25,866 bases of DNA, taken from positions 1-25,866 of the forward strand of contig JAGMES010000058.1 in NCBI GenBank assembly GCA_023128035.1, read 5' to 3'. The notes under the pieces were generated by a model. It saw only the letters and a program-made list of their open reading frames with translations, searched no databases and was not told where the DNA came from. The first letter of the stretch is position 1. Every line of letters starts with the position of its first letter. The stretch is from Halanaerobiales bacterium (GTDB taxonomy: Bacteria > Bacillota_F > Halanaerobiia > DY22613). The translations under genes and the position numbers were made by a program. Positions 9,001-24,781 of this stretch are shown here, piece by piece.

Positions 9001-10786
9001 TGATATATGCTAAGTCTGATGATTGATTTATATTTTCTAAATTTGAACAATCCTCTGCAAACATTTTTTCATCCATTAAATCAATGATCTCCCCAGAAAA
9101 ATGGTTCTGACCTGCTAGATGATTCTGAGTTAATAAAAATTGAGTCCTACTATCTTTTAACGTATAAACTATTCGATCTTCTGGATAATTCGGATCTATT
9201 GGCAGATAGACCCCACCTGCTTTCAATATCCCAATAATTCCGATTACCATTTCAAAAGAACGCTCAACGAGCATTCCCACTATCGTCTCTGCTTTAACAC
9301 CTTTTTCTCTCAAAACCCTAGCCAGTTGATTTGTTCTTTCATTCAACTCCCGATAACTCATTTCTTTATCTTTAAAAACCAAAGCTATGTTATCAGGCGT
9401 TCTAGTCACCTGTTTTTCAAACAATTGATGAATCGTCGTACCTTTTGGATAATCTGCTCTAGTATCATTCCAATCAAACAAAAGCTGTTGCTTCTCCTCT
9501 TTAGAGATCACCTCGATCTCCTCAATCTTCATCTCTGGGCTAGCAACAACTTCCTGAATGATATTACAAAAATGTTCTGCAAACTTCTCCATTGTTTCTT
9601 TTTTGAACAATCGAGTGGCATATTGTAAATTAAAACTGAATTTATTCTTTTTCTCCTGGCCTTCTAGGGTAATATCAAATTGAACCGTTCTGGTTTCAAA
9701 CTGATATGGAGAAAATTTTAAACCTTCGATCATAAGTTCATAGTTATTAATATTTTGAAAAACAAACATTGTATCAAAGAGTGGATTTCTACTCAGATCT
9801 CGTTTAAGATTAAGTTGATCAATTAACGTTTCAAACTGATAATCCTGATTTTTATAACCATTCAAGGCATTCTCTTTTACTTCTAAAAGGAAGTCAGAGA
9901 AGGATTTATCTTGAGCAGGAGTATTTCTCATAGCGATTGTGTTCACAAAAAATCCCACTGTATTTCTCAATTCAGCATGTTGTCGCCCTGCGATTGGGGT
10001 TCCAACGATAACATCATCTTGCTCCGAATATTTAGCCAATAAAACATTATACACAGCAAATAAAAACATAAATACTGTCATATCTTGTTTACGAGCCACT
10101 TCTTTCACTTTTAAAGCTAGTTCTTCTCCTAATTCAAAGTGAAAATTACTCCCTTCATAGCTCATCCGTTCTGGCCTATGATAGTCAGTCAGCATATTTA
10201 ATACTGGTAATTGACCATTAAAAACTTTCAACCAATAGTTTTCTTGTTCTTGAATCAACTCACTATTTAACAAATCATTTTGCCAAATGGCAAAATCTAC
10301 ATATTGAATTTCCACCTCAGGCAAATTTTTATTTAAATACAATTGAATCAATTCATTAATGATAATACCGTTTGAAAAACCATCAGTAATGATATGATCT
10401 ATATCAAAAAGAAAAAGATATTTACAATCTATCAATTTAATAAGTTCAGCTCTCATTAAGGGAGCTTTCGTTAAATCAAAGGGTTTGATAAATTCATAGA
10501 TTAGATCATCTATCTCTAATCCTTCAGCCTGGCTATAACTGATCGTAAAATCAACTTCCTCATAAACCACCTGTGTCACTTTACCATTATTAAACTGAAA
10601 AGCTGTCCGTAAAGCTTCATGTCTTTCAATCAATTTATAAAATGCATCCTGAAATCTTACCTTATCTAAATCCCCCTCTATAATCATTGCGTGTGGAAGA
10701 TTGTAGGCAGTATTTTTACCACTAAATTCTCTTAACATATAAAGTCTTTTTTGAGCAGATGAACACTCAAAACACTCAAATCCCAT
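1..10786 (-). CDS. Multimodular non-ribosomal peptide synthetase, C-A(Thr)-T / C-A(Phe)-T-E / C-A(Asp)-T, 3' end outside window
   Basis: This NRPS adds three amino acids to the chain delivered by the upstream PKS. The frame is open from an ATG at 10,786 to the left edge (3,595 codons, no stop). Module 1: condensation domain with D130-H131-IITDG, A domain with code D-F-W-N-I-G-M-V-H (first residue D643; matches threonine), carrier Ser991 in GGHS. Module 2: condensation HHIISDG (second His 1176), A code D-A-W-T-V-A-A-I-C (D1688; phenylalanine), carrier GGDS (Ser2026), then an epimerisation domain with HHLVIDG (His2211) and EGHGR, so the residue should become D-Phe. Module 3: condensation HHILMDG (His2678), A code D-L-T-K-V-G-H-I-G (D3187; aspartate), carrier Ser3545. 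Only about 50 residues follow that serine, so more modules or a release domain lie outside. The start is one base past the PKS stop, with an AGAGGGG ribosome-binding site inside the PKS end. The codes were aligned by hand to the GrsA positions. Confidence 0.95.
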   Translation of the reverse strand, partial: MGFECFECSSAQKRLYMLREFSGKNTAYNLPHAMIIEGDLDKVRFQDAFYKLIERHEALRTAFQFNNGKVTQVVYEEVDFTISYSQAEGLEIDDLIYEFIKPFDLTKAPLMRAELIKLIDCKYLFLFDIDHIITDGFSNGIIINELIQLYLNKNLPEVEIQYVDFAIWQNDLLNSELIQEQENYWLKVFNGQLPVLNMLTDYHRPERMSYEGSNFHFELGEELALKVKEVARKQDMTVFMFLFAVYNVLLAKYSEQDDVIVGTPIAGRQHAELRNTVGFFVNTIAMRNTPAQDKSFSDFLLEVKENALNGYKNQDYQFETLIDQLNLKRDLSRNPLFDTMFVFQNINNYELMIEGLKFSPYQFETRTVQFDITLEGQEKKNKFSFNLQYATRLFKKETMEKFAEHFCNIIQEVVASPEMKIEEIEVISKEEKQQLLFDWNDTRADYPKGTTIHQLFEKQVTRTPDNIALVFKDKEMSYRELNERTNQLARVLREKGVKAETIVGMLVERSFEMVIGIIGILKAGGVYLPIDPNYPEDRIVYTLKDSRTQFLLTQNHLAGQNHFSGEIIDLMDEKMFAEDCSNLENINQSSDLAYIIYTSGSTGKPKGVMVEHNNLIRLMFNDKFQFDFTETDVWTLFHSYCFDFTVWEMYGSLLYGGKLIIISKLIAQNSQEFLTILLKEKVTILNQTPTAFYNLIAEELKCNKKELAIRYVIFGGEALKPIMLKDWNQKYPETRLINMYGITETTVHVTYKEITAYEIENNISNIGKPIPTLTTYIMNQDQKLVPIGVQGELCVGGDGVARGYLNRPELTEEKFVYNPYFPEERMYRSGDLGRRLPNGDMEYLGRIDRQVKIRGFRIELGEIEKRLLQHEVIKDVVVIDQKDQSGNNYLAAYIISDQQPRIADLRSYLAKELPDYMIPSYFISLDQIPLTSNGKVDRKALPEPSGSISTGVKYVAPENETEENLVALWEEILGVEKIGINDDFFELGGHSLKAASLATKIYQDLNVEISLGEIFKTPTVRELAEFIRRTDESIYSYIEVVEEKEDAYTSTYPVSSAQKRLYVLNQLEGQGITYNMPGFLVIEGELDQDRFVSVFRKLIGRHESLRTSFELIDGEPVQRIHKDVDFNLIYLTTAEKELDRMIDEFIQPFDLSKAPLLRVGLVKYSDKHLLLIDLHHIISDGLSMEIFIHDFIQSYAGNELPELRIQYKDFSEWQNKFFESDEIKKKEKYWLETFAGDIPVLNLPTDYLRPVEMTFAGVSYNFTLSNELTAKVNQLATQNGATLYMVLLASYNILLSKYTGQEDIVVGSPISGRFQGDLDNVIGMFVNTLALRNLPTGEKNVLQFLTEVKENALKAYEHQDYQFEMLVEKLDLERDLNRNPLFDTMFVLQNSDSSELMVSDLKLHPYEFKNRIAKFDLTLNAVKTDEGIQCSLEYRTKLFKKETIERFAGHLENVIYQVVEEPELAVSDIEIISEEEKEQLLFEWNNTRGDYPEKQTISQLFEEQVCKTPNQIAVVFAKEQITYEKLNAKANQLARFLREKGVQSNQIVGIMAERSLEMFIGIMAILKAGGAYLSIDPTYPAERINYMLNDSQTNLLLTQHHLKGQIPFLGEIVDLEEEKLFTGDTSNLELSNNASDLAYVIYTSGSTGKPKGVLLEHIGIANLSQFFKESLGVNAEDRIVQFATCAFDASVWETYMALLSGATLYLITKDTINDHERFENFLNTSGITIATLPPIFLTNLRPKKVASLRKIVTAGSATNFVLVNRWKESVEYINAYGPTETTICASAWKCQEDESTYRTVPIGNPILNTQVYILNKNNHLVPPGVVGELCVSGVTLARGYLNRPELTGEKFVTNPYTKERMYRTGDLARWLGDSNIEFVGRMDTQVKVRGYRIEIGEIENQLLRHDAVNEVVVVARSDQEENKYLAAYFVSDGELKVAELRSFLSKELPDYMIPTYFVSLEKMPLTSNGKIDQKALPEVVESMMIEVVYVAPESEVEKTLAQIWSDVLGVSTIGINDNFFALGGDSIKAMQILARANEYGLNIPVKEIFKHKTIAQILKNVDYNKEKIVISQAEVSGEVLLTPIQRWFFEHQFSHQHYWNQLNLFSLREDVDVKLLEDVFKKIIEHHDALRMGYNFENGQVQQFNLRFDEVDFELGLIELAWDSYEVQKEKIIKISEEIQDQLNLETDLMIKAVLFDLGDNGKRLLIIVHHLVIDGVSWRILLEDLENQYRSKLQDKLPFKTTSFLEWGHQLNHFAETEILDIAYWEKINPVQVKSLSKMEVEENHSRDFKGVTVQVDQDLTEKLLTKVNLAYNTEINDILLTALTLSMTELMNCNNILLTLEGHGREEIIDELDLSRTIGWFTSEYPVYLEKQTTIEKTIKSVKETLRRIPNKGLNYGISRYLQGNEKLQRLNPEISFNYFGQLDGVIEKTEESLLSNCSENPGRSIHYDNSHISLIEINGMILNGKLELRVDYNAKYVEEGLIEKLKIIYLEQLSELITHCTSRIDQNVTASDYGVENLFDIDGFDLLFHSYEDVNTILRINALTPMQEGMLFHSLLNEEGTNYREQTCFWLEGKIDINLFKAAWEEVMERHEIFRTDFKWKEAKSPVQIVLEEKEVEIYEIDISELNIDEQSNYINNFKDTDLNRPFDFKMSKLNRLSLLKLSAEKYFICWTFHHILMDGWSGPVVIKNLLQIYYSLLNQLELPVIPVAQFGDYLEWLKKQNRRIGLQFWQEYLKDFAEPTLLPVDKRKRRGESITESRTMEIGLDQVKTAEINEFCKKNEITINVLIQTAWGILLQKYNNTEQSCFGMTVSGRPGEVEDVENIVGLFINTLPILFNNITNINIREILNNVNNKLVEIREHDYISLVDIEHLSNIDKSQPLFNTIIVYENYPIGSMEYGNVGFEINFDSVYSLTNYDITILVASHEKTSFKFTYNVDLFEDDEIERISKHFINILNVMIQNIELSISEIEMIGEEEKQKLLSEFNDTTIEYAKEKTIHQLFEEQVERTPDHQAIVCTDEQLNFSELNDRANQLAEILIKKGIQKDITVGIMVDRSVEMVVGILGILKAGGAYLPIDPEYPAERMKYMLQDSGTKILVTQSRLQKDLEIEKLDLDTFTYNGESTNPERAVANNLAYIIYTSGSTGKPKGVAIEHQSIANYMNWFTKQGKITKADSSVMLSSYAFDLGYTAFWSSLLSGATLHIVAESLYKDGNLLVDYLGENSITFIKVTPSMFNMMINSPNFMVDDELQSLRIIVLGGEKIRVNDLEVYQSKYPKIQFMNHYGPTEATIGCLSILFDQNDINDFVKRPVIGRPINNMKVYIVDRNDQIQPIGVIGELCLSGVGLARGYLNRPELTEERFIANPFITLNESESLGERLYKTGDLARWLSDGKVEFIGRIDHQIKIRGFRVEVGEIEKQLLTHPNILEAVVSVGEDEACAQYLCAYIVSDSELTVSKLRNYLSKELPDYMIPSYFVQLDELPLTPNGKLDRKALPNPQSKINIETVYVAPTNLVEAKLVEIWSDILGVEKIGIYDNFFDLGGHSLRATQFTARVFKEMNVEIPLREVFEKPTIRELAEDIKNIEQSSYISIEKT

Positions 10787-10787
10787 C

Positions 10788-13178
10788 TTATTTCCCCTCT
10801 CTCCTACGTGGAATTTTTTTAAAAGAAATTTTATTAGAGGTCGAATTAGTATTTTGCTTAAGTACTTGCTTACTAATTTCAGCAATTGTAGGATTTCTAA
10901 AAATTTGATCTAATGATAACTCAATATTAAACTCTTTCGAGATTTTTGACATCAAGGTAAGTGCTATGATGGAATCTCCACCTAAGTCATAAAAACTATC
11001 ATAAATACTCACTTCTTCTAGTCCCAATACTTCTGCCCAAATTCCAGCTAATTTTCGCTCATCTTCACCTAAATCCGGGTCATCTTCTTTAATTACTACA
11101 TTCGTAACTCTTTTAAAACTACGCTCGTGGGATTTATTTCTCTCTCCAATCATTGCTAAAATTCCTTTAACAATATCCTCTTTATCAGATTTATTCAATA
11201 TTTGATTTAATAAATCCATATTTTCAGCACTCACAGCCACTTCTTTCCTCGCCAGCATCATTTCCGAAGGCTTAACCCAACATTTTTTACGATCAAATTG
11301 ATAGACAGGAATATTGATCCGTCTTAATTTTTGCCCTTTATAAATTTCATCCCATGCAATCTCAGCACCTGATACATATGATCTAGCTATCTTTTCATAG
11401 CTGTCTTCTTTAAGATCAACTTTTTCCATCACATTTTTGCTGTTTTTTACATTTCCATAATAAATTCTTTGACCATCTGCAACCTTTTCAAATTTAAATT
11501 TATACAACCTTTTTAATTGACTCATCAAATCTTCACGACCTTCAACGATCAAAGCCAGTCTATAACTATAATGGTTTCTACCTGTATTAGCTGTAAAACA
11601 AAGATGAGCCAAACAAATCTCTTTTTCTGACTCTAGAAAAGTAATATATTTAGAAATGATATCTTTTAATACTTCTTCACTTTTTGCTGATATCGTCAGT
11701 ATATTCACTTTTGATTCATCAGTTTGTGATTCCTTCTCTAGTTTTGGAGCTTCTTCTAAAATCATATGCACATTTGTACCACTCAAACCAAATGCACTGA
11801 TTCCAGCTCTGCGTGGACCAGATTCTACATTCCAATGATTTAATTTAGCATTTACATAAACTGGAGAATTAAGAAAATCAATCTCCCGATTTGGTTTTTC
11901 AAAATGAAGACTGGCTGGAATCTCCCGATTTTTTAAAGCCAATATCACTTTGATCAAACCCACAATCCCTGCAGCATTATCTAAGTGTCCTACATTTGTT
12001 TTTACTGAACCAACGGCACAAAAGTGTTTCTTCTTTGTATGCTTTGCAAACGAGTTCTGTAAAGCATAAATTTCAATCGGATCTCCAAGTTTTGTACCTG
12101 TCCCATGAGCTTCAATATATGAAATTGTCTCAGGATGAATTCCTGCCCTTTTCCAGGCTTTTTGGATAACCCCTTCCTGAGCCTGAAGATTAGGAGCTGA
12201 TATTCCAATCGACTTACCATCCTGATTAGTAGCACTTCCTTTGATAACCGCATAAATTGAATCACCATCTGCTAATGCTTTTTTTAGTGGTTTTAAAAGA
12301 AGGACTCCAACCCCTTCACCAAATCCTGTCCCAGTTGTGTTATCATCAAAAGATCTAGCTCGACCATCTTTTGCTTCAATACCAATTCCCGGGCCAAAAC
12401 CTCCCCCAAACTCCCCAGCATCTTTCGGCTCCGCAGGTATTAACCAGACCTTAACCCCTCCCGCAATAGCCATTTCACAATCTCCATTTTTGATACTTGT
12501 CGATGCCAGATGGACTGCTAATAAGGCAGAAGAGCAAGCAGTATCAACCAGCATACTAGGGCCAGTTAAATCCAATAAGTAAGATAACCTTCCCGTTATA
12601 ACAGCATTAATGTTCCCCAAAGTTGCCAAAGAAAGCAACTCCGGGGAATATTTTTGTATCAATTTTTTATAATCATCACCAAAATCATGACTATGTCCGA
12701 CAAAGACACCTGTGTTACTTCCAGCTAATTTCGTTCCACCATACCCGGCATCTTCAACTGCCTGCCAGGCTGTTTCTAAAAATATACGCTGGTTTGGATC
12801 CATCAAACTAGCTTCCCTGGCAGAAATGCCAAAGAAATTTGGATCAAATCTATCGATATCTTCGAGGTATCCGCCCTCTCGGATAATTACCTCATCTCTG
12901 CTCAAACCTGTGAGTTTTAAATACTCATCTATGTTCTCATCTCTTGCTTTTGGCAACTTACGAATAGAATCCTTACCTTCCTTTAACAACTGCCAGAATT
13001 GATCTTTATCTTCTGCTTCAGCAAATCTGCAGGCCACTCCAATAATTGCAATATCTTCGGTCTGAGATTCTTTGGCTTTCGTAAAATTATGCAGTTCTTT
13101 TAACATCGTCATCGCTTCTATATTTGACAACTGATTAGAAGCCAGTTGTGAATAGATATATTTTTTAATGGATTCCAT
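10788..13178 (-). CDS. AT-less polyketide synthase module, KS-ACP
   Basis: 796 residues. An N-terminal helical segment (about 1-35) looks like a docking region. A ketosynthase covers about 42-480 with a complete catalytic triad: Cys215 in DTACSS, His358 in EAHGTGT and His398 in NVGHLDNAAG. Residues about 490-670 look like the post-KS/AT linker (the YxFDRKKCW stretch matches the usual linker end), but no acyltransferase with a GHSxG motif is present. A carrier domain follows with Ser736 in DLGGDSI. There is no ketoreductase, dehydratase or methyltransferase. By family knowledge this is a trans-AT type module: it should take the aminoacyl chain from the preceding NRPS and add one C2 unit from malonyl loaded by a separate AT, leaving a beta-keto group unless modified in trans. 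It starts 15 nt after the NRPS stop, behind a GGGGGGAG site, and ends 1 nt before the next gene. Confidence 0.93.
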   Translation of the reverse strand: MESIKKYIYSQLASNQLSNIEAMTMLKELHNFTKAKESQTEDIAIIGVACRFAEAEDKDQFWQLLKEGKDSIRKLPKARDENIDEYLKLTGLSRDEVIIREGGYLEDIDRFDPNFFGISAREASLMDPNQRIFLETAWQAVEDAGYGGTKLAGSNTGVFVGHSHDFGDDYKKLIQKYSPELLSLATLGNINAVITGRLSYLLDLTGPSMLVDTACSSALLAVHLASTSIKNGDCEMAIAGGVKVWLIPAEPKDAGEFGGGFGPGIGIEAKDGRARSFDDNTTGTGFGEGVGVLLLKPLKKALADGDSIYAVIKGSATNQDGKSIGISAPNLQAQEGVIQKAWKRAGIHPETISYIEAHGTGTKLGDPIEIYALQNSFAKHTKKKHFCAVGSVKTNVGHLDNAAGIVGLIKVILALKNREIPASLHFEKPNREIDFLNSPVYVNAKLNHWNVESGPRRAGISAFGLSGTNVHMILEEAPKLEKESQTDESKVNILTISAKSEEVLKDIISKYITFLESEKEICLAHLCFTANTGRNHYSYRLALIVEGREDLMSQLKRLYKFKFEKVADGQRIYYGNVKNSKNVMEKVDLKEDSYEKIARSYVSGAEIAWDEIYKGQKLRRINIPVYQFDRKKCWVKPSEMMLARKEVAVSAENMDLLNQILNKSDKEDIVKGILAMIGERNKSHERSFKRVTNVVIKEDDPDLGEDERKLAGIWAEVLGLEEVSIYDSFYDLGGDSIIALTLMSKISKEFNIELSLDQIFRNPTIAEISKQVLKQNTNSTSNKISFKKIPRRREGK
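10793..10805 (-). promoter_or_regulatory. Ribosome-binding site of the three-module NRPS
   Basis: AGGAGAGAGGGG on the minus strand sits inside the last codons of the PKS, shortly before the ATG at 10,786. The PKS stop and this ATG are separated by a single base, which implies translational coupling. Confidence 0.7.
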
Positions 13179-13193: not shown

Positions 13194-16100
13194 TTAAGTT
13201 AGTGATGCAATCAATTCATCCGCTTCTTCCATTGTGATTTCTCCCTTTTTAAACCTCTCAAGAATCGTTTCTATTGTATTTTCCTCATTATCTTCATCAA
13301 CCACAACACCAAATTGACTCTCATAATAATCCATAAACATCTCAATCGTATGATATTTAAAGAGATCCATAAGTTTTATCTCATGATCAAGAATCTTATT
13401 TATCTCTTCATTAACTTTAATGATCGATAATGAGTTGCCCCCTAGAGCAAAAAAACTATCTTTAATTCCAACATGATCAACATTTAAAATGTTCTGCCAT
13501 ACCTCTACCAACTTTTCTTCAATCTCATTTCTCGGAGCCACATACTGGGTTCCAATTTCCATTAAACCCGCAGGTTTCGGTAAAACTTTTCTATTGATCT
13601 TTCCATTAGAATCCAGAGGTAGTTCATCCAACTTAGTAAAGTATGCTGGAATCATATACTCTGGAATATTCTGTAAAAGATATTCGCGAAGATCAGCAAT
13701 CGGTAAGTCCTCTTCAGCTTCATAATATGCAGCCAGATATTTGGTCTCCACTTTTTCCATCACTATCTCTTTTTCTAAACCGATCCGCTGTAAGAAGTTC
13801 TCGAAACCTTTATTAGTTACATTACATTGTAAATCTTCTTTTACATTTTCTACTGTGATATGACCCAATCTCTGCTCCCAACTAGTTGCAAGTCCATAAT
13901 AATGATACTCTGCTTTCTTTAAGTGACCATAATCTCCAATATGTTTGATTGAACAGTTAGTAGAATAGATAGCATAATCCTTACGTTTTTCCCAGTATGA
14001 ATCTTTATCATTCAGATATGAGATCATCTCTTCATTGGTTATGTCACAATAGCGATAAAAATCAATCGTTTTTATCTGATCATATACAGTTCCATCATTT
14101 ACCACATCAATATCCAAATACTCGAAAATTTTCTCATCTAAAGCAGGCAACTGTTTCTGTATTTTTGCAAGTTCTTTTTCAATCTCTGTCACATCTGAGA
14201 TCCCCTGTTTAAAGAACTTAAATAGCTTATTTTCAATAATCTGACCCCGTGATAATGTAGCACCGACCACAATCTGAATACCATTTTTATAAGCATACTC
14301 AGCCGCCAAAGAAGATAATAATAAGAAACATCCTTTACATACGGTGTGAGCTGAATTAAGACTTTCCTTCAAAATTTCCTTTGTATTATCATGGGTTAGA
14401 ACAACATGATCTACGCCTACCTTTTTTGTAACTTTCTTTATATTTGCTAGATCCGATTTGGTAAGATATCCATTATCATAGGTAAAAGCTAATACCTTAA
14501 CTCCCATCTCAACTAGTCTATATAAGGCATAAGCTGAGCCACGTCCACCACTATATAAGATAAGGCAATCATAAGTTCCGTTTGCTGACTTATTCTCTTG
14601 AATAAACTCAGTCAGATCATCCAACTTTTTAAAATATTGATCTGCCATCTCTTTATATTGACTAAATTCTAGACAATGATTGCAAACTCTATCTTCATTG
14701 ATCACAATCTCAGGATAAGCACTCGAGATTCCACATTCTCTACAAATCAAGATCTCATCTTTATCATCCTCAGTATCTCTGACCACAACAGCACAATTTC
14801 GAATCGTTTTGTGTTTCAGCAGAGCTGTTTCGATCTCACCAAGTTCCATTCTATATCCTCTAATTTTCACTTGATTATCAACACGACCCATAATCTCAAT
14901 CGTTCCATCCAAAAGCCAACGACCTACATCGCCTGTCTTATATAATTTACCTTCACCAAAAGGATTATCAATAAATACTTCATTGGTCTTCTCAAAATTG
15001 TTGATATACCCTCTGGCTATACTGTCACCAGCAATACAAATTTCTCCGGGAATTTTTAATGGAGTCAACTGCAAATCTTTTGATAAAATATAGATTTGAT
15101 TATTTGCAACCGGCTTCCCTATGGGGACAACAGAACGTTTGTCATCTCTTTCAAGATAATAATATGTATTATTGATCGTACATTCAGTTGGCCCATAGGT
15201 ATTAACGATTTCACCTTCAAAATAAGTGTAGAAATTATTCACCACATCCATGCTAATCGGCTCTGCACCAATCAACAGCCAAGGTAATTTTAACTTTCCT
15301 GTAAAAGATCTACTATTTAAAAGATAAGTCATCCCTGTAACTAAAGAAGCTGGACAATACATCATCGTCAATCCATCATGGTCTGTCATTAGATCAATCA
15401 AATACTCTGCATCTTTGCTCTGTTCACTGGTAAGAATTTTTACCCTTCCACCTAAATAAAGAGGCCAAAATATTTCCCAAACTGAAGGGTCAAACGTTAA
15501 ATTTGTTCTTTGCACAACTGTATCATCTTTACTTAATTGAAACTCTTCTTGCATCCAATCAATACAATTATTAACTTGTTTATGTTCAACCATAACCCCT
15601 TTAGGTTGACCTGTTGAACCTGATGTATACATAACATAAGCAAGATGATTACTCGTTGTAATCGGTTCAAGATTTTCAGTAGCTTCAGCCATGATACAAT
15701 CAGCTAGGCGATCTAAGAACATTAGCTCTACAGATTTATCCTGTACTTCGTTTTTATTTTCAACAAAACCAATACCATCAATCGTTCTTAAGACTTCTGT
15801 ATCAGGAATTTTAAAATCATTTTCAAACATCTTCTCCAATAATTCAGCAAACGTATATTCACCCTCACCAAAGGCTACCATATCCACATTCTGATCCTGT
15901 AAGATGGTATCATAATCGCTAGATGCATATGGACCACCTGTGATAATGGGAACTTCAATTCCCCACTGACGTAAGAGAGCAACCGTTTCATGGAAGAACT
16001 CTTTAAAGATTGTTAAAGTTCGAATCCCAATCAAATCTGGCTTAAAATCTTCTACAAGAGCTTTTAACTCCTCATAACTATCAAAATCATTTCCAGACTT

Positions 16101-19097
16101 ATAAACTCGACCATCAACCCGCTCACCAAATTCTTGATTTATATATGTCAACAAACAGATTAATCCGATTGGTTGTTCTACAACTTTATATAACATCTTG
16201 CTTGAACTAAAGAGTTGAGATAAATCAAGAAGCAATATATTCTTCGCATCTGGATTTGTCTTCTTCACTATTTCATTTTTGCGATCGAAAATCGTATATG
16301 CAAATTCCTCTTTCTTTTCAATTACTGGAATTTCAAAATCATCAATTCCTGCAAAATCTAGTATGTCAGAGATAGAATTGATATCTACAGGTAAATACGC
16401 ATTATACTTTTGAAGGAAAGCACTCTCATCTAAAATCTTCATCTGAACAGGCAAGACATGCTTCAAACGCTCTTTATTCAAGAAATACTCATTTAAGAAA
16501 CTAGACTGATACTGTCGAGTAAAACTTTTTGGAAATGGTAATGTTTCTGGTAACTCGTGAAAAGCCCTATTTCTTGATCTTAAGATATCTTCTTTAGAAA
16601 CTCCATTTGCCAGAGCAAACTCTTCCATTTCCGTATTCGGAAATATTTTTAAAATATGTATGTATGGAAAATGAAGCCATTTAACATCTTTAATAAAATT
16701 AAGCGTCATCATAGCTTCTTCTTCTATTTCGGTTGGAAATCCATGCATCGTAGCTAACTCTAAAATAATTCCTGGATGCTTAGTAGCTATATAATCAATC
16801 ACATTTTTAAATTCGTCTAAATCAAGATTTTTCTTAAGCAATTTTTGAAGTCTTGGTGAAGCGGTTTCCAAAGAAAGATTAATCCCCCTTGTTCCTGCCT
16901 CAACCATGAGGTCAATATACTCTGGTGTCAAAATGTCTCCCCTCAATCCGTTAGGGAAAAAGATTTGGAGATCTAATTTATTTTTAATTATCATTTTAAA
17001 TAATTTACCACTATTCTCTTTATCTAAATTGAAACAATCATCTATAACAGCAAAGTTCCTTACTCCGTTTTTATAATAGTACTCAATCTCCTGATAGATG
17101 TTTTCCGCACTCCGATGAACATGGAATTTTGACCAAATTTTATGACAATATAGACAATGATAAGGACAACCTCTAGTGGTCTGAAGTGAGATCGAATTAT
17201 TGACACTGGCCATACCAATCTTATTTTTATATTTACTCAAATCAATCAAAGAACGATCTGGCATTGGAAGGCTGTTAAACTCTTTAATATGACCACGTTG
17301 TTTTGTAACAACAATCTGTATATCATTCGAATTATAATTTTTTAGAGATGTAAACGGAATCTCTTTTCGACTCTTCTCATTCGTAAGTAAAATTCTAGCA
17401 TTCGAATCTTTTAACATATAAAGAATTCGTTCTGTTGGATAGTCTGGATCAATCGGCAAATATGCACATCCAGCCTTTAAAATTGCCAATAAACTGATGA
17501 TCATATCTTGAGACCGTTCCAACATGATTCCTACAACTGTTTCCTTAGTCACTCCACACCTTCTCAATCGTCTTGCCAATTGATTTGCTTTTTCATTTAA
17601 CTCTCTATATGTTAACTCATGACCCTCAAATTCGATCGCAATCCTCTCAGGTGCCACTTCAACCTTTTCCTCAAATAATTGATGAATCATCTTATTTTTT
17701 TCATATGCTCTAGCAGTATCATTAAAGTCAAATAATAATTGATTACGTTCTTCCTTTGGTAAAATATTTAACTCAGACACACTAAACTCTGGATTTGAGA
17801 TGATCTCTGATAAAATATGTACCATATGGGTGTTTAAGCGTTCGATCGTTTCTCCAGCAAAAATCTCTACATTATAAATAAAATTGATCTCAATATCTTT
17901 TAAAAGAACCACTTCTACTATCAAATCAAAGTTAGGCATCTCAAATGAAGAATAAGTGTTAACGCATAATTGATTATCACCTTGATTTAATTTTTCAAAG
18001 AAATCGAAGCTTTCAATAACTAATATAGAATCAAATAAATTATGTTTTGCATCAAATTCACTATATGATTTAATATCAACTAAAGACGTTGATTCAAAAT
18101 TTTGTCTCTCAATCGCTTCATCATTGATTTTATACATAATTTCACAAATATTTTTCTGTTCCCCTCTTCTAAAAATAGCTGGAACGGTATTGATAAAAAG
18201 CCCTACCATATTATCTACTCCATCTATGCTAGATGGTCGTCCCGAAACTGTAAGCCCAAAGATTACCTCGTCTGAATTATTATATTTCTGAAGCAAAATT
18301 CCCCAGGCAGTACTGATGATCGAACTAACTGTTACTTTCAAATCTTTTGCTAAATCTTCAATCTTTTTTGTTAAACCTTCTGGAAGTTTAAAAAGCTGAT
18401 TATCAACTTTTGTTAACGAGTTTTTCTTAGGATAATCTACAGGAAGCAAAGTTGGAGTTTGATAATCCTGTAAATATTTGCGCCAATAATCTTCCTGTTG
18501 TCTCTTATCTTGATTATGTAACCATTTTAAGTATTCCCTAAAATTATTTTTTACTGGTCTTGGCGGAGTATTTCCCTGATAAAAACTATTATAAGCCACA
18601 AAGAATTCTTGTAGTAAAATACCCATGCTCCAACCGTCATATAAAATATGATGATTGTTTAAAATCATCTCATAATTATCTTCCGATAGTTTGCATAAGC
18701 TGACTCTAAATAAAGGACCTGTTGACAAATCAAATCTTTCTTTTCTTTCCTTCCTTCTTAACTCCTCAATCTTTTGATCCTTTTTTGTAGTATCAATGAA
18801 TGTAAAATCATACTCTTCCAGTATTAATTCTTGTTCCTTTAAAACTATTTGGATCGGTTTGTTCATATTATCCCATCTAAAAACAGTCCGTAATACTTCA
18901 TTATTTTCTATAACAAAATTCCATGCCTCTTTGAATACCTCAATATTCACTGGGCTAGATATATTTAAACTTAGTTGAGAGAAATATTCTTCAGTTTCAG
19001 GATTACTTATATAATGAAATAATATTCCCTCCTGCATCGTACTCAAACTTAATATGTCTTGTACATCTTGCTTTTGAATTTTTTTAGAATTTTTCAA
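13194..19097 (-). CDS. Single-module NRPS with an A domain interrupted by radical SAM/B12-like and PP-loop units (C-A[rSAM-B12]A[PP-loop]A-T)
   Basis: 1,967 residues, first gene of the operon. A condensation domain (about 15-440) carries HHILYDG with His150 as the catalytic residue. The A domain starts near 465 (A2 motif PIDPDYP near 550), then breaks for about 570 residues that hold a CxxxCxxC radical SAM core (Cys644, 648, 651) and a cobalamin-binding-like fold. It resumes at A3 (TSGSTGQPKG, near 1158), passes the specificity pocket (FDPSVWE, Asp1203) and A8 (GYRMELGEIE, near 1415), then breaks again for about 340 residues of PP-loop ATPase. It ends with the A10 region and a carrier (Ser1889 in GGNS). 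The acidic helical tail resembles a docking element. My reading of the code, D-P-W-M-L-G-T-I-N, matches no code I know. The start is TTG: an in-frame TAA lies directly upstream and a good ribosome-binding site precedes it; the next in-frame Met is residue 21. The uninterrupted frame argues for maintained function. Confidence 0.93.
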   Translation of the reverse strand: MKNSKKIQKQDVQDILSLSTMQEGILFHYISNPETEEYFSQLSLNISSPVNIEVFKEAWNFVIENNEVLRTVFRWDNMNKPIQIVLKEQELILEEYDFTFIDTTKKDQKIEELRRKERKERFDLSTGPLFRVSLCKLSEDNYEMILNNHHILYDGWSMGILLQEFFVAYNSFYQGNTPPRPVKNNFREYLKWLHNQDKRQQEDYWRKYLQDYQTPTLLPVDYPKKNSLTKVDNQLFKLPEGLTKKIEDLAKDLKVTVSSIISTAWGILLQKYNNSDEVIFGLTVSGRPSSIDGVDNMVGLFINTVPAIFRRGEQKNICEIMYKINDEAIERQNFESTSLVDIKSYSEFDAKHNLFDSILVIESFDFFEKLNQGDNQLCVNTYSSFEMPNFDLIVEVVLLKDIEINFIYNVEIFAGETIERLNTHMVHILSEIISNPEFSVSELNILPKEERNQLLFDFNDTARAYEKNKMIHQLFEEKVEVAPERIAIEFEGHELTYRELNEKANQLARRLRRCGVTKETVVGIMLERSQDMIISLLAILKAGCAYLPIDPDYPTERILYMLKDSNARILLTNEKSRKEIPFTSLKNYNSNDIQIVVTKQRGHIKEFNSLPMPDRSLIDLSKYKNKIGMASVNNSISLQTTRGCPYHCLYCHKIWSKFHVHRSAENIYQEIEYYYKNGVRNFAVIDDCFNLDKENSGKLFKMIIKNKLDLQIFFPNGLRGDILTPEYIDLMVEAGTRGINLSLETASPRLQKLLKKNLDLDEFKNVIDYIATKHPGIILELATMHGFPTEIEEEAMMTLNFIKDVKWLHFPYIHILKIFPNTEMEEFALANGVSKEDILRSRNRAFHELPETLPFPKSFTRQYQSSFLNEYFLNKERLKHVLPVQMKILDESAFLQKYNAYLPVDINSISDILDFAGIDDFEIPVIEKKEEFAYTIFDRKNEIVKKTNPDAKNILLLDLSQLFSSSKMLYKVVEQPIGLICLLTYINQEFGERVDGRVYKSGNDFDSYEELKALVEDFKPDLIGIRTLTIFKEFFHETVALLRQWGIEVPIITGGPYASSDYDTILQDQNVDMVAFGEGEYTFAELLEKMFENDFKIPDTEVLRTIDGIGFVENKNEVQDKSVELMFLDRLADCIMAEATENLEPITTSNHLAYVMYTSGSTGQPKGVMVEHKQVNNCIDWMQEEFQLSKDDTVVQRTNLTFDPSVWEIFWPLYLGGRVKILTSEQSKDAEYLIDLMTDHDGLTMMYCPASLVTGMTYLLNSRSFTGKLKLPWLLIGAEPISMDVVNNFYTYFEGEIVNTYGPTECTINNTYYYLERDDKRSVVPIGKPVANNQIYILSKDLQLTPLKIPGEICIAGDSIARGYINNFEKTNEVFIDNPFGEGKLYKTGDVGRWLLDGTIEIMGRVDNQVKIRGYRMELGEIETALLKHKTIRNCAVVVRDTEDDKDEILICRECGISSAYPEIVINEDRVCNHCLEFSQYKEMADQYFKKLDDLTEFIQENKSANGTYDCLILYSGGRGSAYALYRLVEMGVKVLAFTYDNGYLTKSDLANIKKVTKKVGVDHVVLTHDNTKEILKESLNSAHTVCKGCFLLLSSLAAEYAYKNGIQIVVGATLSRGQIIENKLFKFFKQGISDVTEIEKELAKIQKQLPALDEKIFEYLDIDVVNDGTVYDQIKTIDFYRYCDITNEEMISYLNDKDSYWEKRKDYAIYSTNCSIKHIGDYGHLKKAEYHYYGLATSWEQRLGHITVENVKEDLQCNVTNKGFENFLQRIGLEKEIVMEKVETKYLAAYYEAEEDLPIADLREYLLQNIPEYMIPAYFTKLDELPLDSNGKINRKVLPKPAGLMEIGTQYVAPRNEIEEKLVEVWQNILNVDHVGIKDSFFALGGNSLSIIKVNEEINKILDHEIKLMDLFKYHTIEMFMDYYESQFGVVVDEDNEENTIETILERFKKGEITMEEADELIASLT
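13743..14756 (-). other. Insertion 2 in the A domain: PP-loop ATPase domain with paired CxxC motifs
   Basis: Approximate limits (residues 1448-1785). It begins with a zinc-finger-like pair, Cys1452/1455 (CREC) and Cys1472/1475 (CNHC). The nucleotide-binding loop SGGRGS is at 1516-1521, followed by a second CxxC (Cys1587/1590) and a further cysteine at 1715. The general sequence resembles N-acetyl sugar amidotransferases of the WbpG/PseA type. The cysteine order (N-terminal Zn finger, PP-loop, internal CxxC, distal Cys) also recalls TtuA/Ncs6 tRNA thiolation enzymes, where the internal cysteines hold an iron-sulfur cluster. The usual Asp of SGGxDS is Gly1520. Both families adenylate an oxygen and replace it with nitrogen or sulfur, so an amidine, amide or thioamide is conceivable, but this is inference. 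Confidence 0.8.
15693..17330 (-). other. Insertion 1 in the A domain: radical SAM domain followed by a B12-binding-like domain
   Basis: Approximate limits (residues 590-1135 of the host protein). The segment opens with a proline-rich linker, SLPMPDRS, like the one that joins the two halves of B12-radical SAM enzymes. The SAM core follows: RGCPYHCLYC supplies the three cluster cysteines 644, 648 and 651, then VIDDCFN and the NLSLETASP stretch typical of the radical SAM barrel. After the barrel comes a Rossmann-like segment (about 950-1135) with QPIGLICLLTYI, IITGGPYAS and AFGEGEYTF, signatures of the cobalamin-binding domain of this class. The DxHxxG cobalamin motif is absent, as in many members. 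The order is reversed: in standard enzymes the B12 domain comes first. The likely chemistry is methylation, cyclisation or another radical rearrangement of the tethered or activated amino acid; this is inference. Confidence 0.85.
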
Positions 19098-21028: not shown

Positions 21029-21057
21029 AATAAAGTGAATTTGCATTCACATTTATT
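21029..21057 (-). terminator. Hairpin at the end of the PixA-like gene
   Basis: AATAAATGTGAAT, loop GCAA, ATTCACTTTATT on the minus strand: a 12-bp stem with one bulged T, starting at the stop codon. No U-tract follows directly, so it may stabilise the transcript end rather than terminate. Confidence 0.4.
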
Positions 21058-21451
21058 AATTATCCTCAATGTTCAAGAAAGGGTCAAAGGATAGAATTTT
21101 ACCATTCATATTTAAGAATAAATTATACTGAGGGTTATGATTACGACCATTAGCTTCCACTCTAGCTTCCCAATATTCTTCTCCTGAATCATCTTTCTTT
21201 TTTGGCATTATAATATAATCATTAGTGGCTGTTCCAGAAAATTTTTCAATACTAACACTACTATCAGGACTAACTCCAACTACTCTCCATTTAATAATTT
21301 GACCATTTTTGCAACAAGTTGTTAATTCGTTCGTCCCCTCACGATATGACCCTACGTATTTATTTGAGTCTATCATATAGAGATTACTGCTCAAACCTTG
21401 TGCTAAAGCATTCTCAACATCAACAACAATTAAAACTTCCACATTTTTCAT
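21056..21451 (-). CDS. PixA/AidA-family inclusion body protein
   Basis: 131 residues. The opening VEVLIVVDVENALA, then NLYMIDSNKYVGS, EYWEARVEANGRNHN and the end SFDPFL follow the pattern of the PixA/AidA family (inclusion-body proteins of Xenorhabdus/Photorhabdus and AidA of Ralstonia), whose members have about 130-190 residues. There is no signal peptide or membrane segment, so it should be cytoplasmic. Family members form crystalline inclusions or appear in stationary phase and host contact; the biochemical role is not established. The ATG at 21,451 is fixed by AGGAGG eight bases upstream; an overlapping ATG is out of frame. It stands alone on the minus strand between relics of two NRPS systems, one of the few apparently intact genes in the middle region, which suggests selection. 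Confidence 0.8.
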   Translation of the reverse strand: MKNVEVLIVVDVENALAQGLSSNLYMIDSNKYVGSYREGTNELTTCCKNGQIIKWRVVGVSPDSSVSIEKFSGTATNDYIIMPKKKDDSGEEYWEARVEANGRNHNPQYNLFLNMNGKILSFDPFLNIEDN

Positions 21452-21841: not shown

Positions 21842-22330
21842 TTAGATATATTTTACATCCTTCATATAGCGGACTATTTTCATTAGATACTCTACTGTCA
21901 AAGATAAATCAATTTCTATTAATGCATCATAACCTTCCTGCTGTTCCATAGTATTGTATGCCATCATTCTTGACAACAATTCTACTTTCTCCTGTTCCTT
22001 GTCTTCGGTAAGGATTGTATTTAACATATCGCTGAAGGCTTGTGGATCTAGTGTATCAATCTTACATCTCTGTTCTTTGAAAGCTTTGATGAGATCATCC
22101 ATCTTCACTAGTTGATGATTGTAAATATGAAAGGCTTTCTTTGCTGCATCTGCTGTTTGCATAATCTCCACTATAGCTTTACTACATAAGTCGATTAGAG
22201 TCAACTCAATTCTTTGTTCCAGAACTTCTAACACAACAGCACCCATTTCTACTAAACCTTTGAGATTAGCATAGAAGGCATTTTCAGCAATATTGTGTTG
22301 AAAATGTCCATCCTCATAGCGACCAGTCAG
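21842..22330 (-). pseudogene. C-terminal relic of an NRPS thioester reductase (R) domain
   Basis: The minus-strand frame (an ATG at 22,246 is incidental) reads upstream to LTGRYEDGHFQHNIAENAFY and continues IDLCSKAIVEIMQTADAA, FHIYNHQ and LLSRMMAYNTMEQQEG. It parallels the last 170 or so residues of the neighbouring intact R domain (LTGRFLDGQFQ, IDLCSRAIVQIMQTEEAE, FHVYNHK, LLARMVAYYQPEG). The Rossmann nucleotide-binding part, Tyr-Lys catalytic pair, carrier and A domain are all missing. Homology stops exactly at the 60-bp palindrome. The copies are clearly diverged, so this is not a recent duplication; it is probably the tail of a former second NRPS. Without its N-terminal half it cannot act as a reductase. 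Confidence 0.75.
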
Positions 22331-22331
22331 G

Positions 22332-22391
22332 TATAATGTACCCTATAGAGTAGACACTTTTAAAAAAGTCTACCCTGTAGGGTACATTATA
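22332..22391. mobile_element. 60-bp near-perfect palindrome, MITE-like or abutted IS ends
   Basis: Left arm 22,332-22,355 and right arm 22,368-22,391 match at 22 of 24 positions (TATAATGTACCC and inwards GTAGAC), and the centre ACTTTTAAAAAA nearly closes the stem. The arms look like terminal inverted repeats of an insertion sequence without an interior. No clear target duplication is seen. It lies between the stop of the R domain and the break of the R-domain relic, and its transcript would form a long hairpin that could also end transcription of the right-hand NRPS. Confidence 0.6.
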
Positions 22392-22412
22392 AGAAAGAAG
22401 TGGTCTCTATCC

Positions 22413-24263
22413 CTACTTGACCTGGATAAATCCAACCTTATCCATGTACTTGATCACTTTAGTAATGTATTCTGCATCAATCTCTGACCATTCAAAATCT
22501 ATCCTGGAGAGATATTCGATTGTTAGTTTGGCATCAACTTTGACTGGTACGCAATATTCATCATCCCCTTCTGGCTGATAGTAAGCGACCATTCTTGCTA
22601 AAAGTTCAGAGGTTACTTCATCTTCGGCTGTTGCTGCCATGTATTGATTAAACTCTTCAGTATTTAAAGTCTGAAGCTTAATTCCTAGTTCTTGACATAC
22701 ATTGACAACCTGCTTCACCTCTGCACGTTTGTGATTATATACATGGAAGACTCGCCCTTCTGCTTCTTCTGTTTGCATGATCTGTACAATTGCTCTACTA
22801 CAAAGATCTATCGGGGTGAACTCCATGGATTGTTCTAGCAACTCCAGATTTATTGCTCCTATCTCAATCATAGTCTTGATCCTCGTATAGAATGCGTTGT
22901 CAGCGATATTGGCCTGGAACTGTCCATCCAGAAAACGCCCTGTCAGATTACCAACTCTGAAGATAGTAGCCTTTAATCCTTTATGCATTGCTTTAATGAT
23001 CCTGCTTTCACCAGCAAATTTGCTTCTGACATACACATTTTCATCATAGTTCTGCCCGATATAGAAGTCACATTCTGTAAAGATCAATTCATGATCAGCT
23101 TTTGCCATAGTACCAGATACACTGGTTGTCGAAATATGGTTCAGTCTGATTCCATAGGTCATTGCAAAATCAATTATCTCCTGAGTTCCCAGAACGTTGA
23201 CCTTCTCGAAATCTGCATAGTTACCAAAATGTTTAACTAAAGCTGCTGGATGTAAAATTGTATCAACTGTTTCACCAAGTTCTTGATAAGCCTCATCTGT
23301 TAGGCCAAAGTGGTGGAGTGTGATGTCACCATTCAATATTATAACTCTTTCATCCAACAGTTTACTAACTTCTTGATCAAAATAGAACTCTACAAGTTTG
23401 GTCAAGCGTTCTCTTGCCGCCAGCAGATCCTTGCCGCGAACCAGAGCATATATCTTAGCAGATGTACTTGTTAATAGCTCAGTTAACAAGTGAACTCCCA
23501 GGAAGCCCGTTACCCCAGTCAGCAGTACATTTTCCAGCCGTATTCTTTGAGCAGATATTCTGCCTAAATCACTGACTTCAGGTAACTGTTCTTGAAGCTC
23601 AATATCTGAATCGATCATTGACTTCTCTTTGACTCCTCCGCTAATTTTCAATGCTTGCTCACGGATTGTTGGGTATTCAAAGATATCTTGAACAGTTAAG
23701 TTCCACCCGAGGGCAAAGGCTTTTGATACTACTTTCATCGCCAGAATTGAATGTCCACCGATATCAAAGAAGTGATCTGTAACTCCTACAACTTCTACAT
23801 TCAGGATATCTCGCCAGATATTGAGAAGTTGTTTTTCAATCTCATTCTCTGGAGCTACATAATCTACCGCTTTTCTCAGATTACTTTCAGGTTCTGGTAG
23901 TGCTTTACGGTTAACTTTGCCATTAGCAGTTAACGGCAGTTTCTCCAATGCAACGAAGAATGCTGGAATCATGTAGTCTGGGAGCTCCCGGCCTAAGTAT
24001 TCTTTAAATCCGGTCATTTCCAGTTCCCGTTCAGAGACAATGTATGCACAGAGATACTTGTTGCCTGAAGCATCTGTTCGATCAATTACTGCGACCTCCC
24101 TGATCTGGTCATGGCTCAATAAGCAATTCTCAATCTCACCTAACTCAATTCTGAAACCTCTAATTTTCACCTGATAATCAATCCGACCTAAAAACTCAAT
24201 ATTGCCATCAGGGAGCCATCTTGCCAGGTCACCAGTTCTGTACATTCTTACCCCTGGAACCAA
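22413..24263 (-). CDS. NRPS fragment: C-terminal part of A domain, carrier and thioester reductase domain
   Basis: The homologous frame really begins near 24,350 (GELCVSGAGVARGYLNR); the Met at 24,263 is internal. It contains A7/A8 (YRTGDLARW, VKIRGFRIELGEIE), A10 (LTANGKVNRKALP), a carrier with GGHS, and a terminal reductase of the Lys2/MxcG type: Rossmann motif GVTGFLG near 23,510, HISTTSVSG, and the catalytic Tyr-Lys pair in YVRSKFAGE near 23,025. Such domains use NAD(P)H to release the bound peptide as an aldehyde or alcohol. The reductase is full length, about 400 residues, with no visible defect. No ribosome-binding site is evident at 24,263, so separate translation is unlikely. Confidence 0.75.
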   Translation of the reverse strand: MVPGVRMYRTGDLARWLPDGNIEFLGRIDYQVKIRGFRIELGEIENCLLSHDQIREVAVIDRTDASGNKYLCAYIVSERELEMTGFKEYLGRELPDYMIPAFFVALEKLPLTANGKVNRKALPEPESNLRKAVDYVAPENEIEKQLLNIWRDILNVEVVGVTDHFFDIGGHSILAMKVVSKAFALGWNLTVQDIFEYPTIREQALKISGGVKEKSMIDSDIELQEQLPEVSDLGRISAQRIRLENVLLTGVTGFLGVHLLTELLTSTSAKIYALVRGKDLLAARERLTKLVEFYFDQEVSKLLDERVIILNGDITLHHFGLTDEAYQELGETVDTILHPAALVKHFGNYADFEKVNVLGTQEIIDFAMTYGIRLNHISTTSVSGTMAKADHELIFTECDFYIGQNYDENVYVRSKFAGESRIIKAMHKGLKATIFRVGNLTGRFLDGQFQANIADNAFYTRIKTMIEIGAINLELLEQSMEFTPIDLCSRAIVQIMQTEEAEGRVFHVYNHKRAEVKQVVNVCQELGIKLQTLNTEEFNQYMAATAEDEVTSELLARMVAYYQPEGDDEYCVPVKVDAKLTIEYLSRIDFEWSEIDAEYITKVIKYMDKVGFIQVK

Positions 24264-24319
24264 TGGATTCTCTACAAATTTCTCTGCCGTCAGTTCTGGT
24301 CTATTCAGATACCCTCGCG

Positions 24320-24781
24320 CTACCCCAGCACCAGATACACAAAGTTCACCAATGCCCCTACTGGAACTGGACGATCATTTTGATCTAAGATATAGACCTG
24401 AGTATTGGCAATTGGAGTTCCGATTGGAACAGACTGATATTTATTGAGATCACCTGTACACTTAAAGGCGGTTGCACAGATAGTGGTCTCTGTTGGTCCA
24501 TAGGCATTGATATACTCAAGGCGGTCTCCCCACCTATTGATAAGTTCAAAGTTAGTGGTTGAACCTGCTGTGATTACCTTGCGTAACAAGAATACCTTCT
24601 CTGGATTCAAGTTGCTTAAGTAGATCGGCGGTAAGGTAGCAATGGTGATCTCAGTCTGGTTCAAGAACTGTTCAAAGTCGGCTAAACTATTAATTGTATG
24701 ACGGGTTGGAATATATAGCGTTGCCCCACATATACTCTTCCCCGACTGATGCATCAAAGGCACAGGTGGCAAACTGAACAA
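24320..24781 (-). CDS. NRPS fragment: middle of A domain between the two frameshifts
   Basis: The meaningful part runs from about 24,728 to 24,350 and reads GATLYIP, ITIATLPPIYLSNL, RKVITAGSTTNFELINRW, YINAYGPTETTICA (A5) and VPIGTPIANTQVYIL. The preceding residues up to 24,781 and the last residues (after PVGA) are out-of-frame noise. It cannot act alone, because it lacks the A2/A3 and A8-A10 parts. Confidence 0.65.
   Translation of the reverse strand: MFSLPPVPLMHQSGKSICGATLYIPTRHTINSLADFEQFLNQTEITIATLPPIYLSNLNPEKVFLLRKVITAGSTTNFELINRWGDRLEYINAYGPTETTICATAFKCTGDLNKYQSVPIGTPIANTQVYILDQNDRPVPVGALVNFVYLVLG

What the first reader, a model, noticed from the sequence alone, without database searches (positions are those of the whole stretch)
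13194..19097. Adenylation domain interrupted at two places by unrelated catalytic domains
One uninterrupted 1,967-residue frame contains an A domain split between A2 and A3 by a radical SAM/B12-like unit and again after A8 by a PP-loop ATPase. Interrupted A domains are known mainly with methyltransferases, at these same two loops, and some with oxidases or ketoreductases. I know of no described A domain carrying a radical SAM or PP-loop enzyme, let alone both. The arrangement suggests an amino acid modified twice in cis while being activated or tethered.
Basis: partly seen in the sequence, partly recalled or inferred. Interest (0 to 1): 0.93.

Follow-up and report, generated by a model that had tools for sequence, protein, structure and literature searches.

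The report
Twice-interrupted adenylation domain with radical enzyme
A bacterial peptide-building enzyme has two further enzyme units spliced into its amino-acid-selecting domain, a B12-type radical SAM unit and a relative of a known asparagine-altering unit that has lost a key residue of its ATP site, so it would likely modify its building block twice while holding it.

The parts
13194..19097 (-). whole gene: C - A(N) - [rSAM-B12] - A core - [AMDH-like AANH] - A(sub) - PCP, 1,967 aa
17733..19064 (-). condensation domain, residues 12-455, HHxxxDG intact
17346..17732 (-). A domain, first part (residues 456-584) with A2 motif LKAGCAY at 540
15693..17345 (-). insert 1 at A2/A3: circularly permuted radical SAM + B12-binding unit, residues 585-1135, 64 kDa
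17145..17168 (-). radical SAM cluster motif CPYHCLYC (C644, C648, C651)
15837..16172 (-). B12-binding domain, residues 976-1087, lying after the radical SAM domain
14757..15692 (-). A core (A3 to A8), residues 1136-1447; pocket residues DPWYLGTIN, conserved across the double-insert rows
13728..14756 (-). insert 2 at A8/A9: AMDH/CtaC/WbuX-type AANH domain, residues 1448-1790, 39 kDa
14673..14744 (-). tetracysteine C1452, C1455, C1472, C1475 (zinc site in the LpNASAT relative)
14535..14552 (-). remodelled PP-loop SGGRGS (Asp of SGGxDS replaced by Gly1520)
14328..14339 (-). CxxC (C1587, C1590), aligned with the CxxC of TtuA PH0300 and of CtaC
13953..13955 (-). third cysteine C1715 of the presumed Fe-S triad
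13533..13727 (-). A subdomain after insert 2, with A10 Lys1833
13326..13517 (-). peptidyl carrier protein, residues 1861-1924
10788..13178 (-). next gene: KS - linker - ACP without a Pfam acyltransferase match (trans-AT type), which would extend the modified residue
2..10885 (-). following NRPS (4 condensation-type, 3 A, 3 PCP stretches; pocket codes read as Thr, Phe and Asp, codes recalled), runs off the window

Best explanation
The window encodes one NRPS module whose A domain is interrupted by a circularly permuted B12-binding radical SAM unit (A2/A3) and by an AMDH-type AANH domain lacking the ATP-motif Asp (A8/A9), and it likely loads a single fixed amino acid onto its own carrier domain, where the radical SAM unit likely methylates a side-chain carbon and the AMDH-like Fe-S domain likely carries out an ATP-independent rearrangement, before the neighbouring ketosynthase would extend the residue. 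Shown by calls: the order of domains, conservation of both inserts, the permuted order, the intact A core (predicted model), the shared pocket residues, the missing Asp, the seven conserved cysteines, the following KS gene. Inferred: one fixed substrate (from the pocket), methylation (from the B12/radical SAM class), side-chain rather than alpha carbon (E domains follow three radical SAM modules), the Fe-S cluster (from the CxxC...C triad shared with CtaC and TtuA), the loss of the ATP-dependent half of AMDH chemistry, the order of steps. Unknown: the amino acid and the product.
For: Architecture and breadth. Pocket DPWY[ILFV]GT[IV]N in 118 of 122 rows. Double-insert A cores form one clade of 22 rows plus L008, which is cut off at its contig end (SH-aLRT 100). 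Radical SAM unit: 44 units inside A domains, 5 classed as other and the 2 of P0005 form one clade of 51 rows (SH-aLRT 99) nested among B12-radical SAM proteins outside NRPSs. The B12 domain follows the radical SAM domain in 49 of 50 NRPS-linked loci (1 undetermined) and precedes it, alone, in 23 of 29 others (1 after, 3 both, 2 none). Units without insert 2 sit in A domains with codes read (recalled) as Thr, Ile, Asn, Pro, Leu, Gln/Glu, Orn; 17 label changes on the A tree, at least 9 forced (with 40 of 79 uninterrupted cores sampled): a portable unit. Side chain rather than alpha carbon: E domains (TIGR01720) follow it in L010, L011, L034. Insert 2: 22 A-embedded AANH inserts are one clade (98/96), the 13 double ones a subclade (100/100); the CxxC...C triad is present in 22 of 22 and in CtaC, absent in 4 of 4 sugar amidotransferases. 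CtaC is a PCP-dependent [4Fe-4S] enzyme whose C154, C157, C284, D77 and S78 variants are impaired or inactive (PMC6772006, passages). AMDH acts on PCP-bound Asn (PMC7966384, passages). Insert 2 is better conserved (median identity 0.56) than A-sub (0.43) or PCP (0.37), less than the radical SAM core (0.78) or A core (0.67). KS follows in 9 of 10 distinct double loci.
Against: No radical SAM family hit reaches its curated cut-off; the best (PhpK, Sden_1168) are P-methyltransferases, and BchE and AprD4, also listed, are not methylases (recalled), so methylation is a class guess. D77A and S78A abolish CtaC activity, so loss of the Asp may simply mean a dead domain. The pocket does not match the Asn code of AMDH modules. 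The Asp loss is one event in one clade, not many independent ones, and the 122 rows were picked by similarity to the window's inserts, so invariance is partly built in and unlisted hits (15 of 135) could differ. Model 2 has pTM 0.56, so the placement of insert 2 is not established.
Confidence: 0.42

Rival explanations
1. Insert 2 is catalytically dead and serves as a scaffold, so only the radical SAM unit modifies the loaded amino acid.
For: ATP-motif Asp absent in 122 of 122 rows; the CtaC D77A and S78A variants are inactive; in cystobactamid the O-methyltransferase CysQ works only when the AMDH domain is present, for which the authors suggest protein contacts.
Against: Seven cysteines kept (122 of 122 for six, C1715 121 with 1 gap) and LSRGQI, DFYR and STxC blocks kept, more constraint than on A-sub or PCP.
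Confidence: 0.27
2. Insert 2 still uses ATP through its altered loop and makes a nitrile or thioamide on the loaded residue, as AMDH or CtaC do.
For: Gly-Gly kept in 101 of 122 rows and Arg at the fourth position in 104 of 122, so the loop is remodelled, not eroded; AMDH and CtaC precedents.
Against: The Asp is absent in every aligned row; 19 rows have Cys-Glu-Arg-Val in place of Gly-Gly.
Confidence: 0.14
3. The two inserts act together: a carbon radical made by the radical SAM unit is joined to sulfur from the Fe-S cluster of insert 2.
For: The triad matches sulfur-transferring AANH enzymes (TtuA, CtaC); loss of the ATP step would fit a donor role; in the aligned rows both inserts occur together with the Asp loss.
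Against: Close radical SAM units occur without insert 2 in many other A domains; sulfur-supply genes were not looked for.
Confidence: 0.1
4. Insert 2 is an amidotransferase that turns a side-chain amide into an amidine, like WbuX/WbpG.
For: Best curated family match is TIGR03573 WbuX, E 1.2e-29 over nearly the full length.
Against: Score 103.8 against a cut-off of 203.2; the Fe-S triad is absent in 4 of 4 sugar amidotransferases but present here, and two of three annotated ones sit beside HisH/HisF-type genes, which I did not notice beside the double modules (ORFs read by eye, no profile search).
Confidence: 0.04
5. Assembly chimera or pseudogene.
For: The NRPS upstream in the same window is broken into pieces in different frames.
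Against: 121 homologues aligning through both inserts, open frame, catalytic residues kept, core folds in the model.
Confidence: 0.01

Closest known systems
AMDH domain of CysH (cystobactamid) and AlbIV (albicidin)
   Same: A roughly 38 kDa AANH-like domain inserted in an A domain, acting on the PCP-bound amino acid; P0239, named albIV by its source (an Eremiobacteraeota MAG, not the albicidin producer), is 37% identical to the window insert over 330 aa.
   Different: AMDH-type domains keep SGGKDS (119 of 119 matched) and 68 of 105 have the Asn-type pocket; the window family lacks the Asp, has another pocket, and carries a radical SAM unit in the same A domain. The sequences of CysH and AlbIV themselves were not compared.
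CtaC, Fe-S thioamide synthetase of closthioamide
   Same: Tetracysteine, then PP-loop, then CxxC, then a third Cys at similar spacing; acts on PCP-bound substrates.
   Different: Free-standing, intact ATP motif, 24% identity over positions 28-317 of 333, outside the A-embedded clade.
Interrupted A domains with methyltransferases (TioS, TioN, KtzH, MarQ)
   Different: Classical SAM methyltransferases (PMC11355689, PMC8949500); dual interruption at both loops is described in the passage seen as engineered.
B12-dependent radical SAM enzymes (PhpK, BchE, PoyC, CysS, DscE)
   Same: CxxxCxxC core and a Pfam B12-binding domain.
   Different: Those are free-standing with the B12 domain first (for the named examples recalled; in 23 of 29 relatives outside NRPSs); here the order is reversed and the unit lies inside an A domain.

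Membership tests
Interrupted NRPS A domain | A core motifs complete, another domain inserted at A2/A3 or A8/A9 | tested here: met
Interrupted NRPS A domain | A core still folds around the insert | tested here: met
Interrupted NRPS A domain | adenylation and tailoring activity in vitro | not testable with these tools
   needs protein
AMDH domain (CysH/AlbIV) | inserted in an A domain, about 38 kDa, homologous to other A-embedded AANH inserts | tested here: met
   39.4 kDa; one clade with A-embedded inserts, 98/96; CysH and AlbIV themselves were not in the tree
AMDH domain (CysH/AlbIV) | ATP-binding motif SGGKD | tested here: not met
   SGGRGS here; Asp in 0 of 122 rows; 119 of 119 matched AMDH-type domains keep SGGKDS
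AMDH domain (CysH/AlbIV) | host A domain of Asn specificity | tested here: not met
   pocket DPWYLGTIN; Asn-type in 68 of 105 AMDH-type modules
CtaC-type thioamide synthetase | Fe-S triad CxxC + C | tested here: met
   C1587, C1590, C1715 by sequence; a bound cluster is not shown
CtaC-type thioamide synthetase | ATP-site Asp and Ser (D77, S78), both required | tested here: not met
   Gly1520; Ser1521 kept in the window but Ala in 86 of 122 rows
WbuX/NASAT sugar amidotransferase (TIGR03573) | score over the curated cut-off | tested here: not met
   103.8 bits against 203.2
B12-dependent radical SAM superfamily | CxxxCxxC radical SAM core plus B12-binding domain | tested here: met
B12-dependent radical SAM superfamily | B12 domain N-terminal to the radical SAM domain | tested here: not met
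   order reversed in the window and in 49 of 50 NRPS-linked loci
PhpK / Sden_1168 P-methyltransferases | score over the curated cut-off | tested here: not met
   96.2 against 600 and 93 against 575 bits

The most novel reading that the evidence does not exclude
An A domain that is a three-enzyme station: besides loading its amino acid, two metal-cluster enzymes folded into it work as a pair on the tethered residue, the radical SAM unit making a carbon radical and the ATP-free AMDH-derived Fe-S domain delivering sulfur or steering a radical rearrangement, a C-S or skeletal-editing chemistry built into an NRPS module.
Probability: 0.1. Interest if true: 0.93.

Novelty: new variant of a known kind. 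Interest (0 to 1): 0.74.

Why it matters
In the papers that I saw, radical C-H functionalisation in NRPS pathways is done by separate enzymes (DscE on discodermin, PMC12858407; CysS in cystobactamid, PMC7966384). Here it is built into the loading domain as a cassette that turns up in A domains of many predicted specificities, so it could be a natural template for engineering radical methylation into NRPSs. The 122 double-insert rows are natural ATP-site variants of an AMDH-like domain, close to the experiment that its discoverers proposed to separate its two activities, and the shared cysteine triad gives a testable Fe-S explanation for the dark brown colour of CysH. The A-domain pocket is nearly invariant across several phyla, which suggests one unknown building block made by many bacteria.

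Tried and rejected
Amidotransferase reading (WbuX is the best HMM): set aside after the Fe-S triad test. Epimerase reading of the radical SAM unit: disfavoured, since E domains follow it in three modules. Substrate prediction from the pocket: no code that I recall matches DPWYLGTIN; the nearest A-tree neighbours are read as Ser-type, with support 84 only. Position 278 of the code shifts between alignments, so I use for full codes and eight positions for counts. No whole genome is held for the window. At E 1e-40 or better insert 2 matched 1 of 398 genomes of one phylum, 5 of 58 of one order and 3 of 295 of one family; this did not reveal the product. Rfam: no hit. Papers seen: PMC6772006, PMC7966384, PMC10607449, PMC11355689, PMC8949500 (passages; of PMC8949500 also section 11), PMC12858407 (passages and section 10), PMC12707348, PMC9259500 and PMC13185837 (passages); all others as search listings only. 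'Not in print' rests on the listings in an open-access library, not on the whole literature. Limits: searches list the best 120 of 776, 135 and 2166 hits; one search used 140 homologues and dropped 19 partial ones; one search missed modules whose A3 motif did not match its pattern; one search matched 119 domains in 122 proteins, its pattern required two glycines (so relatives without them would be missed), an A10 motif followed in 97 and an A8 motif preceded in 45 by my patterns, some listed proteins carry no A domain of their own, and 105 gave a code.

Full report
WHAT IS THERE. The finding's frame lies on the minus strand, 13194-19097. It encodes C - A - PCP. The A domain is split twice. Between A2 (residue 540) and A3 (1157) lies a radical SAM domain followed by a B12-binding domain; between A8 (1411) and A10 (K1833) lies a PP-loop/AANH domain. 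A2-A3 and A8-A10 distances have medians of 612 (101 cases) and 413 aa (86) against 69 (11) and 73 (8) for uninterrupted A domains of the same protein set. The next genes encode KS-linker-ACP and a three-A-domain NRPS.

INSERT 1. The unit scores best, far below cut-offs, against B12-radical SAM families. A scan of genome contigs with an alignment of its core gave 79 loci (116 confirmed stretches, the best 80 kept). L001-L007 carry both inserts, and L008 is cut by its contig end; L009-L050 show no insert 2 after the unit's own A core (some are cut by contig ends); L051-L079 are relatives in another setting. In a tree of 83 radical SAM domains, 44 units inside A domains, five classed as other and the two of P0005 form one clade of 51 rows, SH-aLRT 99, and the nine double ones with L009 (contig end) one subclade of 10, SH-aLRT 99. 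In 49 of 50 NRPS-linked loci the B12 domain follows the radical SAM domain, whereas it precedes it, alone, in 23 of 29 relatives: a circular permutation. A free protein, P0005, reads rSAM-B12-rSAM-B12, and its middle matches canonical B12-rSAM models, which is how such a permutation could arise (inference). A cores with insert 1 alone carry pockets that I read (codes recalled) as Thr, Ile, Asn, Pro, Leu, Gln/Glu and Orn, and on the A tree the label changes 17 times, at least 9 times by starred branches. The unit also occurs between A and PCP (L014, L026) and as separate proteins (L042, L049). It thus behaves as a portable unit whose action would not depend on one side chain. E domains follow it in three modules (L010, L011, L034), which argues against alpha-methylation there; methylation of a side-chain carbon is my inference from the enzyme class.

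INSERT 2. The best curated family is WbuX sugar amidotransferase, below cut-off. LpNASAT, a solved member, has a zinc tetracysteine and SGGKDS (PMC10607449, passages). A profile search of the PDB puts TtuA PH0300 second after LpNASAT, with its CxxC aligned to that of the insert. CtaC, the closthioamide thioamide synthetase, works on PCP-bound substrates; its D77A and S78A variants are inactive and its C154, C157, C284 variants diminished (PMC6772006, passages). I found a protein in a genome handle (G422) with D77, C154, C157 and C284 at exactly these numbers and take it as CtaC. In a tree of 37 AANH domains, 22 A-embedded inserts are one clade (98/96) and 13 double ones a subclade (100/100); the CxxC...C triad is in all 22 and in CtaC and in none of 4 sugar amidotransferases (several long branches outside the embedded clade). 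A search with the AANH domain of a Paenibacillus massiliensis NRPS (P0144) gave 2166 proteins, one of the 120 listed named albIV: these are of the type of the AMDH domain of CysH and AlbIV, which in CysH dehydrates Asn to cyanoalanine or isomerises it on the carrier (PMC7966384, passages). Their A domains have the Asn-type pocket in 68 of 105 cases; that paper says its homologues are all in Asn-specific A domains. In an earlier small set it was 5 of 9 against 5 of 79 uninterrupted neighbours (p 6.6e-4, not phylogenetically corrected, with near-copies on both sides). A2-A3 spacing in the AMDH-type set is normal (49 of 49 measured under 94 aa).

THE DIFFERENCE. In all 122 aligned rows of the double family the Asp of SGGxDS is gone (Gly 90, Val 19, Ala 11, Ser 2), and Arg stands before it in 104. 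All 119 matched AMDH-type domains have SGGKDS. The seven cysteines stay, and insert 2 is more conserved than A-sub or PCP, less than the radical SAM or A core. This is one evolutionary event, seen in rows picked for similarity to the window. It predicts loss of ATP-dependent dehydration; what remains could be the isomerase-type half, a Fe-S function, or scaffolding.

MECHANISM. Load, methylate, rearrange, extend: the pocket DPWY[ILFV]GT[IV]N (118 of 122 rows) would fix one substrate; the two inserts would act in cis on the tethered residue; a KS gene follows in 9 of 10 distinct double loci (window, L001, L003-L007, L098, L100; not L002; in L005 after several other genes; L008 cut; acyltransferase neighbours in L001 and L100 were read by eye). 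The parallel in cystobactamid is beta-hydroxylation in trans by CysJ plus AMDH in cis; here the side-chain carbon step would be done in cis by the radical SAM unit. None of these steps is tested.

KNOWN OR NEW. Interrupted A domains are a known kind, with methyltransferase, oxidase, monooxygenase or reductase inserts (PMC11355689 and PMC8949500), and AMDH inserts are known. In the listings of seven searches of the open-access library I found no paper describing a radical SAM-interrupted A domain, nor a natural A domain interrupted at both loops. I file it as a new variant of a known kind.

Noticed in passing
AMDH-type domains of P0143-P0264; L080:16001-16963; L081:16001-16972; window 13953-14339: AMDH-type domains carry a CxxC plus distal Cys triad like the Fe-S ligands of CtaC and TtuA. 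The CysH authors saw a dark brown protein and report only that a CxxCxxxC motif was not found (PMC7966384), so this is a candidate metal site.
   Followed up: partly
L014 (around 10570-12003), L026 (around 4654-6102), L042:4703-6709, L049:9782-11479, P0005: The permuted radical SAM-B12 unit also sits between A and PCP, as a separate protein, and as a free-standing tandem of two.
   Followed up: partly
L022:7508-8569, L031:5439-6704, L046:5879-6973; L109:9722-10867: Free-standing AANH proteins with intact SGG[VK]DS lie beside radical SAM-interrupted modules with pocket DPENIGHID (three loci) and within a double-insert cluster (L109).
   Followed up: partly
L081, L102, L104, L105: Asparagine synthase genes lie near AMDH-type modules in these four loci, and racemase-like genes in L081, L104 and L105 (annotated in L081, otherwise read by eye).
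   Followed up: no
window 21842-25866, minus strand: A C-A-PCP-reductase NRPS upstream is broken into pieces in different frames; no ORF of 100 aa or more lies between 19098 and 21055.
   Followed up: no
window 21056-21451, minus strand: Small gene matching NCBIfam MakCD (regulator of an alpha-pore-forming toxin, over cut-off) and weakly PixA.
   Followed up: no
L004:8612, L005:3620, L022:8702, L031:8603, L046:7008 (frame starts): Several radical SAM-interrupted proteins seem to start with only the C-terminal half of a condensation domain (EKEYWxxxLxG-like start, read by eye); the window protein has a full one.
   Followed up: no
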